NCBI RefSeq assembly: GCF_029910095.1
Contig: NZ_CP094526.1
Coordinates: 2,852,001-2,916,000 of the forward strand
Reading direction: 5' to 3'
Source of the DNA: Bradyrhizobium sp. ISRA464
Lineage (GTDB): Bacteria; Pseudomonadota; Alphaproteobacteria; Rhizobiales; Xanthobacteraceae
DNA: 64,000 nucleotides
Shown: positions 1 to 46,683 of the stretch, piece by piece
Layout of the letters: the number at the start of each line of letters is the position of its first letter
Numbering within the stretch: position 1 is the first letter of the stretch
Notes under the pieces: generated by a model
The model's database searches: none
The model's input: the letters and a program-made list of their open reading frames with translations, nothing else
Told to the model about the DNA's origin: nothing
Made by a program: the position numbers and the translations under genes

Positions 1-1131
1 GCGGTCGGCTTTGTCGCGCGCCCGATCGGTGCTGCGATTTTCGGGCACTATGGCGACCGCATCGGCCGCAAATCGACGCTGATCGCGACGCTGCTGCTGA
101 TGGGACTGGCGACCGCCGCGGTCGCGGTGGTGCCGACCTATTCGAGCATCGGCATCTGGGGCGCGGTGATCCTGACCGCACTGCGCTTCATCCAGGGCGT
201 CGGCGTCGGCGGCGAATGGGGCGGCTCGGTGTTGATGTCGATGGAGTGGGCCCGCAACGACCGGTCGCGCGGGCTGATCGCCTCGTGGCCGCAGTTCGGC
301 GTGCCATGCGGCCTGTTCCTCGCCAATCTCGCCGTGCTGGCGTTCAGCCAGATGTCAGGCGATCAGTTCCTGGCCTGGGGCTGGCGCATTCCGTTCGCCC
401 TCAGCCTCATCCTGGTTGCCGTCGGCCTCTACATCCGGCTCGGCATTCTGGAAACGCCAGTGTTCTCGAAGCTGCTCGCCGAGCGTCAGCTCGACCGAAC
501 GCCGATGCTGACGGTGATCAAGGAATATCCGCGGGAGATTCTGCAGTCCGCGTTTGCGCGCATGTCCGAGCAGGCGCCGTTCTACGTCTTCACCGCGTTC
601 GTGTTCTCCTACGGCATCGGTACGCTTCACCTCACGCGCGACCTGCTGCTGACCGCGGTGCTCGCGGCTTCGGTGGTGTCGTTCGTCGCGATCCCGGTGT
701 CCGGGTACGTGTCCGACCAGATCGGCCGCAAGAACATGTACATGATCGGGGCCGTCGTGACCGGCGTCTTCGGCTTCATCTACTTCGCGATGCTCAATAC
801 CGGATCGGAGCCGATCATCTTTCTCGCGATCGTGCTGTCGCTGATCCCGCACGACATGCAGTACGGCCCGCAGGCCGCCCTGATCGCCGAGAGCTTCACC
901 GGACGCCTGCGCTACAGCGGCGCGTCGCTCGGCTATCAGCTCGCATCTGTCATCGCCGGCGGCCCCGCGCCGCTGATCGCAGCCTGGCTGTTTGGCACCT
1001 TCAAGTCCGCGACCGCGATCGCAATCTATATCGCGATTTGCGCGGTCATCACGCTGATCGCGACCGCGCTGATGACCGACTACACGGGCAAGGATATCAA
1101 CGCGGTCGGCGCGCATGAGCGGCGCGCTTGA
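1..1131 (+). CDS. MFS transporter, metabolite:H+ symporter family (5' truncated)
   Basis: This is the C-terminal ~376 residues of an inner-membrane major facilitator. The reading frame is open from base 1, so the true start lies upstream of the window. The visible part opens with an ARPIG segment followed by GDRIGRK (bases 52-72), the loop 2-3 signature of MFS proteins. A second copy, SDQIGRK, lies near base 715 at the start of the second half. About ten hydrophobic segments follow. The RPxG plus GDRxGRK combination is typical of the metabolite:H+ symporter group (ShiA, ProP, KgtP type), which takes up organic acids or osmolytes with protons. The substrate cannot be told from sequence. The small SPW gene follows 38 bases later on the same strand. 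Confidence 0.9.
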   Translation, partial: AVGFVARPIGAAIFGHYGDRIGRKSTLIATLLLMGLATAAVAVVPTYSSIGIWGAVILTALRFIQGVGVGGEWGGSVLMSMEWARNDRSRGLIASWPQFGVPCGLFLANLAVLAFSQMSGDQFLAWGWRIPFALSLILVAVGLYIRLGILETPVFSKLLAERQLDRTPMLTVIKEYPREILQSAFARMSEQAPFYVFTAFVFSYGIGTLHLTRDLLLTAVLAASVVSFVAIPVSGYVSDQIGRKNMYMIGAVVTGVFGFIYFAMLNTGSEPIIFLAIVLSLIPHDMQYGPQAALIAESFTGRLRYSGASLGYQLASVIAGGPAPLIAAWLFGTFKSATAIAIYIAICAVITLIATALMTDYTGKDINAVGAHERRA

Positions 1132-43697: not shown

Positions 43698-43816
43698 GGC
43701 TGTTGAGGCCGTCGAGCGCTTCGCAAACCAGATGTCGTTTTTTGCTCGATCTGAGTCTCGGAGCGAGAAAGACCAGTAGTTGCTCTACGGATTTTGGCCC
43801 CTTCAGAGTCTATTCT

Positions 43817-43862
43817 GGTTCCATCGGAGTCATTTGGCCAAGATTAGGGTTCCATCGGAGTC
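43817..43862. promoter_or_regulatory. two direct repeats of GGTTCCATCGGAGTC
   Basis: Identical 15-base copies at 43817-43831 and 43848-43862 are spaced 31 bases start to start. That equals the period of the following TTTTACGGAC array but with a different core sequence. They may be binding sites or relics of a related array. Confidence 0.6.
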
Positions 43863-43941
43863 TTTGATTTTCCGGTTCGGTGGCAGCAAATTGGCCGACA
43901 GCAGACGGGCAGGGGGAGGCCTCAAGGGATCTCCGGATCTC

Positions 43942-44116
43942 TAATCGACTTTTACGGATAAAATCGTCAGCTAAATCGACTTTTACGGACAATTGGGCCT
44001 TGCGGAACGCGGCTTAATCGAACAATAAGCCACTAATCTAATTTTACGGACAAAATTTGGCCGTTAGTCGAATTTTACGGACAAGGCTGGCGCTTAATCG
44101 ACTTATACGGACGGAG
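43942..44116 (+). promoter_or_regulatory. iteron-like operator array before the Fic gene
   Basis: Five direct repeats with the core TCGAnTTTTACGGA(C/T)A start at 43945, 43976, 44037, 44068 and 44098; a partial copy (TTAATCGAA) lies near 44018. Intervals are 31, 61, 31 and 30 bases, about three helical turns, so the sites face the same side of the DNA. The last copy runs into the GGAG ribosome binding site (44112-44115). This is the layout expected for autoregulation by the product of the downstream gene, which is inferred. Confidence 0.7.
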
Positions 44117-44123
44117 ACTGCAG

Positions 44124-45707
44124 ATGGTGTCGTTCGGGGAAATCCAGATGACGACCGGCGACGACGAGACGGCAAACCGGCAGATCCGTCGCCGGGCCGA
44201 GGCCGGAGAGTTGAGACAGATCACCGAGCGCGTCTACACGTCGAACCGTCACGACGATCTGGCCGCCGTCGTGAAACGCAATGCCTGGTACATCCTTCCA
44301 CACCTCTTCCCGAACACCGTCATGACATCGCGGACGGGCGCGAAAGTCAGCGTGTACCAGCCGGAGAAGAACGGAAAATCGTACGTGTTCCTCACTGGGC
44401 CGTACGCGACACGCAACGTCGAGCTTCCCGGAATGGAGGTGAGATTAATTCGTGGGCCGTCAGCGTTGCCCGGCGACACGCCAATGACGACGGCAGACTT
44501 TTATGTTCCGTCGCGCGCGCGCACTCTCCTCGAGAATCTCATGCCCTCTCGCTCGCGCGGCGGCATCCAGCGAAATCTCCGCAAAGACGAATTTGAAGAG
44601 TACCTCGTCACGCTCCTCGATTCCGGCGGAGCCGAAAATTTCAACGAGATCCGCGATCAGGCGCGTACCTTGGCGCCCCAACTCAAGGCCGAGGAAGAAT
44701 TCAAGACGCTCGACCGCCTCATGGGAGCACTCCTTGGGACGCAGAAGACCCGGTTCGCAAGTCAGGCTGCCAAAGTGCGGGCATCGGGAGCCGACAAGGT
44801 CTGCACCGAACGTCTGCAGGCCCTGTTCTCCCATCTGAAGTCCCTGACTTTCCAGAACCTGCCCGCCTCAAGCGACGGCGCGATCCGTCAGTCGACGGCC
44901 TTCATCGAAGCCTATTTCTCTAATTTCATCGAGGGCACGGAATTCACTCCCAAGGAAGCGCAGCGGATCGTCTACAGCGGTCAGGCGCCGGTCAATCGGC
45001 CCGCCGACGGTCACGACATCCTTGCGACTTATCGTCTTCTGACCGACGAGCGCGCTTTGAAGGCGAAGCCTTCAAACTACGAGGAATTCGAGAGCATGCT
45101 GCGCGCGCGCCATGCGCTCCTTATGGAGGCGCGCCCGGAAAAGCAGCCCGGCAAGTTCAAGACGGCGACGAACAGCGTCGGCGGAGTCCAAATGGTCGCG
45201 CCGGACCTTGTCATCGGCACCTTCAAGATCGGCTACGACTTGCTTCAAGGCCTGAGCGAACCATTCGCCCGCGGGCTATTCCTCCACTGTCTCATTGCGG
45301 AGGTGCATCCTTTCGATGACGGCAACGGTCGGATGTCGCGTCTCCATTTCACGTCGGAACTGCTGCAGGCCGATCAGGCCCACGTCATTATCCCGACGGT
45401 CTTCCGGGACGACTACATCGGAGGCATGCGGTCGCTGACGCGGCGCGGCGATCCGGCGCCGATCACGAGGGCATGTCTTCGAGCCCAGGAGACAACGGCC
45501 GCGATTCAGGTGCCAACCGTAGACGATGCGATCATCGCATGGGCTAAGACGAACGCCTTCATGAAGCCCAACGCAAACGCCCGATTGGAGGTCTACGATC
45601 CGGCCACCGAAATCGATTGGCGCGGCGAGATGCCGGCGCCGGTCAGCTACTGGGAAGCGGAAGAAAATCCGGGATCGATCCTTTCGCCGGGCTCCCTGAG
45701 CCGGTAA
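44124..45707 (+). CDS. Fic family protein with AbiEi-like N-terminal region
   Basis: A 527-residue protein. The C-terminal half is a Fic AMP-transferase-type domain with the complete active site HPFDDGNGRMSR (His395 to Arg406). Before it lies SNFIEG (Ser266, Glu270, Gly271), the (S/T)xxxE(G/N) inhibitory helix of class II Fic proteins. Residues ~12-110 resemble the winged-helix N-terminus of AbiEi-type antitoxins: IRRRAEAGELRQITERVY, then NAWYILPHLFPNTVMTSRTG. It may thus sense or bind DNA and modify a target by adding a nucleotide. GGAG precedes the ATG by eight bases. Composition is less G/C-rich than its neighbours. The Fic call is firm; the AbiEi likeness is by eye. Confidence 0.85.
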   Translation: MVSFGEIQMTTGDDETANRQIRRRAEAGELRQITERVYTSNRHDDLAAVVKRNAWYILPHLFPNTVMTSRTGAKVSVYQPEKNGKSYVFLTGPYATRNVELPGMEVRLIRGPSALPGDTPMTTADFYVPSRARTLLENLMPSRSRGGIQRNLRKDEFEEYLVTLLDSGGAENFNEIRDQARTLAPQLKAEEEFKTLDRLMGALLGTQKTRFASQAAKVRASGADKVCTERLQALFSHLKSLTFQNLPASSDGAIRQSTAFIEAYFSNFIEGTEFTPKEAQRIVYSGQAPVNRPADGHDILATYRLLTDERALKAKPSNYEEFESMLRARHALLMEARPEKQPGKFKTATNSVGGVQMVAPDLVIGTFKIGYDLLQGLSEPFARGLFLHCLIAEVHPFDDGNGRMSRLHFTSELLQADQAHVIIPTVFRDDYIGGMRSLTRRGDPAPITRACLRAQETTAAIQVPTVDDAIIAWAKTNAFMKPNANARLEVYDPATEIDWRGEMPAPVSYWEAEENPGSILSPGSLSR

Positions 45708-45844
45708 ACATCAGCCGCAGCAGCAGCGCGAGGAGTGGCCAAAAGTCGGGAGCTCGGAAAGCGAACAGGATCAGCGAGAGCCGACTGGCTGCACTGCAGC
45801 GCCCCGCTGCCTGCCTTTGTCTATTGTGCTGCAAGAGGACCCAC

Positions 45845-46640
45845 TCAGTTGTGAGCCTTTCGCAGTATGAGAGGCAACACCCCGCCGACGCGGAGGATCT
45901 CGCACTCAAGATGAGTTTCGATCGCGGCGGTTGCGACAAAGCGTGCGATCTGAGTGCCATCTCGCACGATACGCACCACGACATCAGCCCGTGGTTGGAT
46001 CGCTTCGGTTGGGGCAATCGATCTCGAGGCTATAAGTCGGTCTAAGTCCGAGGTCCCGCGGCCGACGATCGGCAGGCATACGCGGCGGTAGTACTCCCGT
46101 GCCGATCAGGTTGGAGCGGTGGATTCGCTCGAAGCTTGACGCCAGCACGGCGCGAACACCGAGCAGCGCAACGCCCTTGGCGGCCCAATCGCGTGACGAG
46201 CCCATGCCGTAGCGTTCGCCGGCCACGATCACGACCGAGCGGCTCTCCTAGGCATATCGCTCGGCAGCAAGTCGAAGCGAGACCTGTTCGCCGGAACCGG
46301 CGTGAATCGTCGTGCCCGGTGCAGATCGGGACCGATCAGGTTGCGCACGCTCTTGTTGGTGAACAGCCCGCGCAGCATCACCTCCCAATTTCCCCGGCGC
46401 GAGGCGTGTCGGGGGCCGCGAACGCTGCCCAATCGGCGCTTGCTTCCGCGGCATCATAGGCGTGGCTGTAGTCGCTCGTTTCGCGCGCGGGCGCGAGTGC
46501 GGTATCTATCTCACGACCGGTCGGCCAGAGATCGGCGAGGCGGACTTCGGTACCGGCCGCATTTCGCGCAATGGGATCGCGCAGGATGTCGCGCGTGGCG
46601 TCACCGGCGATTGCAAAAGCAACTCGTGCGACCGGCCGGT
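45845..46640 (-). pseudogene. aconitase-family gene remnant (C-terminal part)
   Basis: Reading the minus strand from ~46640 down gives, in the right order, pieces of an aconitase/AcnD-type C-terminal half: VAFAIAGD and VRLADLWPTGREID (to ~46480), RGNWEVMLRGLFTNKSVRN (~46400), IHAGSG and AAERYA (~46270), then IVAGERYGMGSSRDWAAKG and SFERIHRSNLIG (46230-46100), and finally FVATAAIETHLEC and GGVLPLILR (to 45848). The frame changes at least three times (near 46430, 46320 and 45986), and an in-frame TAG occurs at 46248-46250. The N-terminal two thirds, including the iron-sulfur cysteines, are missing. It cannot make an active enzyme. Confidence 0.85.
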
Positions 46641-46683
46641 CTGTAATCGAGAAGAATCTACCGGCCAATCTCGCCCAAAAACA

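What the first reader, a model, noticed from the sequence alone, without database searches (positions are those of the whole stretch)
44124..45707. Single-gene fusion of an AbiEi-like DNA-binding region with a self-inhibited Fic domain
The Fic active site (HPFDDGNGRMSR) and the class II inhibitory motif SNFIEG are complete in one protein, and the N-terminus resembles the winged helix of AbiEi antitoxins. AbiEi proteins autoregulate type IV toxin-antitoxin operons, so here regulator, antidote helix and toxin-like enzyme may be one polypeptide. The gene lies in a low-G+C insert beside a decayed gene, as defence genes often do. It has no partner gene. A one-gene toxin-antitoxin or phage-defence module is a reasonable hypothesis.
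Basis: partly seen in the sequence, partly recalled or inferred. Interest (0 to 1): 0.8.

Follow-up and report, generated by a model that had tools for sequence, protein, structure and literature searches.

The report
Self-regulating Fic enzyme with phased operators
A bacterial gene joins a DNA-binding antitoxin-like part to a protein-modifying Fic enzyme, and it and many distant relatives carry evenly spaced DNA repeats just before the gene that look like docking sites through which the protein switches off its own gene.

Summary
Window 44124-45707 encodes a 527-aa class II Fic protein (HPFDDGNGRMSR; SNFIEG) whose first ~145 residues resemble the type IV antitoxin AbiEi (profile comparison; best PDB fold match 6y8q, modest scores). 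The fusion is widespread but patchy (8 of 265 same-genus genomes; also other phyla and plasmids), annotated 'Fic family protein', with no conserved partner gene found.

The new result lies outside the given coordinates. Five 20-bp direct repeats about 31 bp apart precede the gene. Among 45 distinct upstream regions of the family, lineage-specific repeats 30-32 bp apart reach the threshold in 27, against 7 of 241 neighbouring-gene controls. The shared frame is cTTAw-N5-A/T-rich; a further TTAW follows 40-43 bp on in 25 of 45. The unit shared with a 94%-identical copy at another site is this array plus one ORF.

Best reading (0.7): a self-contained, autorepressed and self-inhibited AMP-transferase whose N-terminal module binds direct-repeat operators, unlike the inverted operators of AbiEi and CccR. 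Autoregulation is inferred. The Fic target and any toxin, plasmid-maintenance or phage-defence role are unproven. New variant of a known kind.

The parts
44124..45707 (+). Fusion gene: AbiEi-like N-terminus plus class II Fic domain, 527 aa
44124..44558 (+). Residues 1-145: AbiEi-like module (recognition-type helix 15-26, wing 31-39, then alpha/beta domain)
44919..44936 (+). SNFIEG, class II inhibitory motif (residues 266-271)
45306..45341 (+). HPFDDGNGRMSR, Fic active site (residues 395-406)
43940..43959 (+). Operator-like repeat 1
43971..43990 (+). Operator-like repeat 2
44013..44032 (+). Degenerate repeat (CTTAATCGA...), seen by eye only, not listed by the repeat tools
   Evidence: sequence printed
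44032..44051 (+). Operator-like repeat 3
44063..44082 (+). Operator-like repeat 4
44093..44112 (+). Operator-like repeat 5, ends 11 bp before the start codon
43940..45709 (+). Unit shared (90.8% DNA identity) with a copy at another site in a relative: repeat array plus this one ORF
   Evidence: L155
43589..46670 (.). Inserted or replaced stretch relative to related genomes
43733..43866 (.). About 135-bp block shared with L155 and L156, with its own direct repeats (GGTTCCATCGGAGTC); possibly a transposon end
45984..46232 (-). Aconitase C-terminal fragment (decayed gene)

Best explanation
The locus is a one-gene, self-regulating Fic module. Inferred: the AbiEi-like N-terminus of the protein binds several direct repeats, spaced close to whole helical turns (about 31 bp, three turns), that lie over or just before its own promoter and start codon, and so represses the gene. 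Shown by conservation: repeats of this spacing recur before the gene across the family although their sequence changes from lineage to lineage. The Fic domain is predicted to be an AMP-transferase held off by its own glutamate (E270 in SNFIEG) until that block is relieved. Because regulation of expression and of activity are both in one polypeptide, the unit moves as operator array plus a single ORF. It most likely serves as a conditional growth-arresting module of mobile DNA; this last step is the weakest.
For: Five repeats in the window with spacings 31, 61, 31, 30; 5 matches against 0.11 expected; in the whole 8.46-Mb genome all 4 sites with at most 1 mismatch lie here, and 3 sites elsewhere with 2 mismatches compare with 2 for the reversed control pattern. 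Family test: self-match at spacing 31 averages 10.98 of 16 against 7.80 in controls (z 15); threshold 12 of 16 at spacing 30-32 is met by 27 of 45 against 7 of 241, and 11 of 16 by 36 of 45 against 25 of 241. Gibbs motif cTTAw-N5-A/T-rich with information 7.9 bits against 4.2-4.6 in five control runs; held-out AUC 0.974-0.994, motif alone 0.947-0.972. A third TTAW at +40..43, not used in the fit, in 25 of 45 (background 0.9% per offset), and a TATAAT-like element after repeat 2 in 12 of 45 against 2.8 at shifted places. A 94%-identical copy at another site shares 43940-45709, array plus ORF. No conserved neighbour. Antitoxin AbiEi itself is an autorepressor binding repeated operators (PMC3985639, passages), and HTH-bearing Fic proteins can autorepress (CccR, PMC9755527, passages). 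Fic and inhibitory motifs conserved.
Against: No binding or expression data. The winged HTH is reduced in the model, so DNA contact is inferred. Operator divergence follows the whole protein: correlation with the Fic domain (0.327) is no weaker than with the DNA-binding region (0.291), and the partial correlation is larger for Fic (0.202) than for the wHTH (0.130). 18 of 45 upstream regions miss the threshold. No sigma-70 promoter was found in the window's own upstream region by the consensus scan. 8 of 60 other Fic genes also pass the repeat test; all 8 carry an HTH-type domain by Pfam, 6 of 8 above the curated cut-off, so spaced repeats are not exclusive to the AbiEi type; the other 52 were not checked for HTH domains. 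Held-out halves were random, not split by clade. Starts were assigned by rule, not by experiment.
Confidence: 0.7

Rival explanations
1. The repeats are operators, but of another regulator (a host factor or a neighbouring gene product), and the N-terminus serves another purpose such as substrate binding.
For: The N-terminal HTH is reduced in the model; operator sequence does not track the DNA-binding region more closely than the Fic domain.
Against: No regulator gene is conserved next to the family; repeats change with the protein lineage and recur with it in unrelated genomes and plasmids; the repeat array is inside the minimal shared unit.
Confidence: 0.14
2. The repeats are transposase-binding sites at the end of a mobile element, next to the gene by chance of its mobility.
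For: Arrays of direct repeats are typical of some transposon ends (recalled, no call); a second block with its own repeats lies at 43733-43866 and is shared with L155 and L156.
Against: Motif family keeps a fixed place relative to the start codon (2nd copy most often at -44 to -52) across phyla; only site cluster in the genome; no match of this motif elsewhere in the window, so no partner end was seen.
Confidence: 0.06
3. It is an anti-phage abortive-infection gene of the Sofic type.
For: The Fic region scores with PADLOC SoFic (E 7.4e-15) and PDC-S04 (E 2e-14) models. Sofic is reported as an abortive-infection protein (PMC12249575, abstract and passages).
Against: The SoFic match covers only the Fic part (256-481); the N-terminus differs; the small downstream antitoxin gene AS1 of Sofic has no counterpart shared by L001 and L155, whose similarity ends at 45709, 2 bp after the stop. 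The window flanks are not a recognised defence island. These facts lower membership, not the possibility of a defence role.
Confidence: 0.25
4. It is not a toxin: an ordinary transcription regulator whose Fic domain senses nucleotide state or modifies the regulator itself.
For: Class II Fic proteins are normally self-inhibited; DNA binding switches CbFic2 between activities (PMC10628234, passages).
Against: Patchy distribution (8 of 265 same-genus genomes; 13 of 385 in the class) and presence on plasmids (19 of 31 matching records cover at least 80% of the query) fit a mobile, dispensable module better than a core regulator.
Confidence: 0.25

Closest known systems
[quoted passage not shown] agalactiae, PDB 6y8q) and Rv2827c
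   Same: Similar fold along the N-terminal 157 residues and profile similarity; repeated operator boxes of 20-23 bp over the promoter (PMC3985639 and PMC7319586, passages).
   Different: No AbiEii nucleotidyltransferase partner conserved; fused to Fic; repeats direct and 30-32 bp apart instead of inverted (23-3-23 in AbiE; two inverted pairs in Rv2827c); reduced HTH. Of 30 PF13338 antitoxin genes in relatives, 1 reaches the spacing threshold.
CccR of Yersinia pseudotuberculosis (FIC domain plus C-terminal DNA-binding domain)
   Same: One polypeptide with Fic and DNA-binding parts; autorepression shown for CccR (PMC9755527, passages).
   Different: Opposite domain order; CccR binds two 10-bp inverted repeats 26 bp apart; no AbiEi-like region described in the passages seen.
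CbFic2 of Coxiella burnetii
   Same: Class II Fic protein with an HTH domain; DNA binding controls activity (PMC10628234, passages).
   Different: HTH at the C-terminus, of DeoR type; no specific operator was reported in the passages seen.
Sofic / SoFic
   Same: Class II Fic domain.
   Different: Different N- and C-terminal parts; Sofic has a small downstream antitoxin gene AS1 (PMC12249575, passages).
FICD / FIC-1
   Different: Animal proteins without DNA-binding part.

Membership tests
Class II Fic proteins | HxFx[D/E]GNGRxxR active-site motif | tested here: met
   HPFDDGNGRMSR; 119 of 121 aligned homologues
Class II Fic proteins | N-terminal inhibitory motif [S/T]xxxE[G/N] before the Fic core | tested here: met
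   SNFIEG 266-271; 121 of 121; aligned with the motif of FIC-1
Class II Fic proteins | Fic fold | tested here: met
Class II Fic proteins | AMP transfer, relieved by loss of the inhibitory glutamate | not testable with these tools
   needs biochemistry
AbiEi antitoxins (type IV TA) | N-terminal wHTH plus C-terminal antitoxin domain | tested here: inconclusive
   fold and profile similarity, but low scores and only one helix before the wing
AbiEi antitoxins (type IV TA) | Adjacent AbiEii/DUF1814 nucleotidyltransferase gene | tested here: not met
   no neighbour ORF family in more than 4 of 44 loci; no separate Pfam scan of each neighbour was run
AbiEi antitoxins (type IV TA) | Inverted-repeat operator | tested here: not met
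   direct repeats in the window; spacing test is for direct repeats; inverted repeats were not surveyed over the family
Sofic anti-phage system | SoFic domain layout over full length | tested here: not met
   PADLOC SoFic covers protein 256-481, profile 54-286 of 361; NCBIfam SoFic 10.5 bits against cut-off 550
Sofic anti-phage system | Small downstream antitoxin AS1 | tested here: not met
   no shared DNA beyond 2 bp after the stop between window and its 94% copy; other members not checked for ORFs under 60 aa
Sofic anti-phage system | Phage protection | not testable with these tools
   needs plating tests
CccR-type Fic regulators | Fic at the N-terminus, HTH at the C-terminus, inverted operator | tested here: not met
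   Fic at 240-464 after the DNA-binding-like region; direct repeats

The most novel reading that the evidence does not exclude
An AbiEi-type module has been recruited to make a one-polypeptide toxin-antitoxin system in which a phased array of direct-repeat operators is also an activity switch: protein lined up on one face of the DNA is held in a fixed oligomeric state that keeps the Fic domain off or in AMP-removing mode, so that loss or dilution of the operator DNA (plasmid loss, or takeover by a phage) both derepresses and activates the enzyme.
Probability: 0.13. Interest if true: 0.85.

Novelty: new variant of a known kind. Interest (0 to 1): 0.62.

Why it matters
Fic proteins are mostly studied as separate toxin-antitoxin pairs, secreted effectors or FICD-like enzymes. 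Here a large, unnamed family puts an AbiEi-like module, a self-inhibited Fic enzyme and a lineage-specific direct-repeat operator into one portable gene. Because each lineage carries its own readable operator, the family offers a natural set of matched protein-operator pairs for testing how such a module reads DNA, and a way to find members and guess their regulation from DNA alone. It also joins two fields, type IV antitoxins and Fic enzymes, in a directly testable way.

Tried and rejected
Transposon-end reading of the 31-bp array: kept as a rival at low weight because the array is fixed relative to the start codon and unique in the genome. Specific co-change of operator with the DNA-binding region: tested and not found beyond whole-protein relatedness. 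General AbiEi operator: PF13338 antitoxin genes of relatives do not show the spacing (1 of 30 at 12 of 16, 3 of 30 at 11 of 16; starts assigned by rule; the list included weak matches). General Fic operator: 8 of 60 other Fic genes pass (of 64 loci, 4 skipped), all 8 with HTH-type domains. Sequence search of the N-terminal profile against PDB sequences gave no AbiEi hit (best E 0.12, HSP70). VIA on the full model showed no AbiEi row because the Fic domain fills the list. Sigma-70 promoter scan of the window found none. No full-length match among phage records: 1 record, Fic part only. Rows dropped before the family counts: of 51 loci with a match, L010, L013, L098, L101 and L113 were left out (cut, N-terminus not covered, or second piece of a broken gene) and L097 as a near-duplicate, leaving 45; L001/L096 and L110/L111 are related pairs that remain. 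In the covariation test 43 of 45 had proteins over 380 aa. Five further plasmid loci looked at later gave best self-matches at spacing 30-32 of 12, 14, 11, 11 and 12, but three are close relatives of loci already used (L172 and L176 of L106, L173 of L107).

Full report

The array upstream. Five repeats of about 20 bp lie at 43940-44112 with start-to-start spacings 31, 61, 31 and 30; 5 matches of the core in the window against 0.11 expected. In the whole genome the 4 sites with at most one mismatch are all here; three sites elsewhere have two mismatches, against two for the reversed control pattern. By eye there is one more degenerate copy at 44013 in the 61-bp gap (sequence).

The array is a family trait. 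I collected loci from the genome search, the search for related loci and plasmids and took 160 bp before each start. For 45 distinct upstream regions (of 51 loci with a match; six dropped, see Tried and rejected) the mean best 16-base self-match at distance 31 is 10.98 against 7.80 for 241 upstream regions of neighbouring ORFs (z 15). At distances 30-32, 27 of 45 reach 12 of 16 against 7 of 241 (Fisher p 1e-19); 36 of 45 reach 11 of 16 against 25 of 241. Hosts include Bradyrhizobium, sphingomonads, Bacteroidota, Acidimicrobiia, Elusimicrobia and Bdellovibrio (record titles). The genus name Bradyrhizobium is inferred: the 94% homologue is named so and its longest contig (948,881 bases) has the length of the contig behind L155 in a genome of the same genus.

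The motif. A Gibbs fit of paired sites gives cTTAw-N5-A/T-rich-N-T[CG]NC, with TTA nearly fixed and the middle and end varying by lineage. Its information is 7.9 bits against 4.2-4.6 in five runs on control sets; trained on random halves it separates held-out members from controls with AUC 0.974-0.994, or 0.947-0.972 by motif alone. Halves were not clade-separated. Two features were not used in the fit: a further TTAW 40-43 bp after repeat 2, often touching the start codon, in 25 of 45 (background 0.9% per offset); and a TATAAT-like hexamer after repeat 2 in 12 of 45, against a mean of 2.8 at shifted places. The window itself shows no sigma-70 consensus promoter there. Spacings near 31 and 41 bp are close to three and four turns of B-DNA (10.5 bp per turn, textbook), which would put bound proteins on one face; this is inference.

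Controls against the reading. Of 30 upstream regions of PF13338 antitoxin genes in relatives, 1 reaches 12 of 16. Of 60 other Fic genes (64 loci, 4 skipped), 8 do, and their mean profile peaks weakly at 31-32. All 8 carry an HTH-type domain by Pfam, 6 above the curated cut-off and 2 below it; the other 52 were not scanned. So spaced repeats may be a habit of DNA-binding Fic proteins in general. Operator distance follows protein distance (rho 0.29 for the wHTH region, 0.29 for the rest of the AbiEi-like part, 0.33 for Fic), with no extra signal for the DNA-binding region (partial 0.130 against 0.202 for Fic).

The moving unit. In two relatives the chromosome flanks of the insert lie 167 and 194 bp apart; of 11 related loci examined none matches the insert, and 7 show both flanks, 167-950 bp apart. 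The 94%-identical copy in another genome shares 43940-45709 with the window at 90.8% DNA identity: the repeat array and the ORF, ending 2 bp after the stop. It also shares a separate block at 43733-43865. A 42%-identical gene in a third genome (L099/L156) sits behind the same block but has its own repeats. Neighbour ORFs of at least 60 aa within 3 kb (less where the locus was short) form no cluster in more than 4 of 44 loci. The gene is patchy: 8 of 265 genomes of the genus (one of them with the gene broken by a stop), 13 of 385 in the class sample, 4 of 295 in the family sample, 5 of 398 in the phylum sample (G000 itself is counted in each, and the first look scores few candidates, so these are lower bounds). 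It occurs on plasmids: 31 records match, 19 over at least 80% of the query, near toxin-antitoxin, recombinase or conjugation genes in several of the records whose annotation I saw. Phage records hold no full-length copy.

Mechanism. Shown: domain layout by motif and prediction, conserved motifs, conserved phased repeats, compact shared unit, lack of conserved partner. Inferred: binding of the repeats by the protein itself, repression, AMP transfer, self-inhibition by E270, and a growth-arrest or mobile-element role. I put the autoregulated Fic reading at 0.7.

What is known. AbiEi binds two 23-bp inverted repeats separated by 3 bp (PMC3985639, passages); Rv2827c binds two pairs of inverted 23-bp repeats (PMC7319586, passages). 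[quoted passage not shown] CbFic2 changes activity on DNA binding (PMC10628234, passages). Sofic has a small downstream antitoxin (PMC12249575, abstract and passages). I found no report of an AbiEi-Fic fusion or of direct-repeat operators for a Fic gene in these searches of the held open-access library: AbiEi with Fic domain (5 papers), Fic/fused/AbiEi/antitoxin (5), AMPylation/direct repeats/Fic/promoter (0), AbiEi with direct repeats (12, 10 listed), Fic protein/direct repeats/autoregulation/operator (61 with three of four terms, 20 listed). Most of these papers I saw only as listings, and subscription journals are largely missing.

Verdict. The finding is real and its core interpretation, regulator and enzyme in one polypeptide, is strengthened; the toxin or defence role is open. 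Interest 0.62; new variant of a known kind.

Noticed in passing
L157:10703-12280 (-) (P0122) and L174:9278-10897: A different Fic family (42% identical to each other over 501 positions; related to the window protein only over the Fic core) has its own tandem array at about 24 bp: four copies of TATTGTAATTGCACAACATA-like sequence at -118, -94, -70, -46 in L157, and repeats at 23-24 bp before L174:9278. No AbiEi hit for P0122.
   Followed up: partly
L045, L049, L062, L068 upstream regions: Fic proteins of about 300 aa with an N-terminal Cro/C1-type HTH (Pfam HTH_26) carry repeats with an AATCTTTACTTTT core about 32 bp apart before the gene.
   Followed up: partly
window 43733-43866: Block with direct repeats GGTTCCATCGGAGTC, starting TGTCGTTT, shared with L155 and L156 (82-87% identity), single copy in the genome; looks like a transposon end (recalled, IS21-like; untested).
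   Followed up: partly
window 45984-46668 (-): Aconitase remnant: C-terminal domain fragment with no obvious rest of the gene; the piece 46378-46668 has no Pfam match.
   Followed up: partly
L098/L101, L110, L111, L112/L113: Several family members are broken by an in-frame stop, as expected for a costly or dispensable gene.
   Followed up: no
L002 upstream, about -252 to -200 from the start: Besides forward repeats, the 71% homologue has reversed copies (TGTCCGTAAAAGTC) 31 bp apart farther upstream, perhaps a divergent promoter.
   Followed up: no
L107, complement upstream of the DUF6088 gene: A DUF6088 (AbiEi-like by annotation) gene next to a family member has its own near-perfect 50-bp-spaced repeat containing TTTGTCACAAATAAATCATAAATTTGTGACA.
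   Followed up: no
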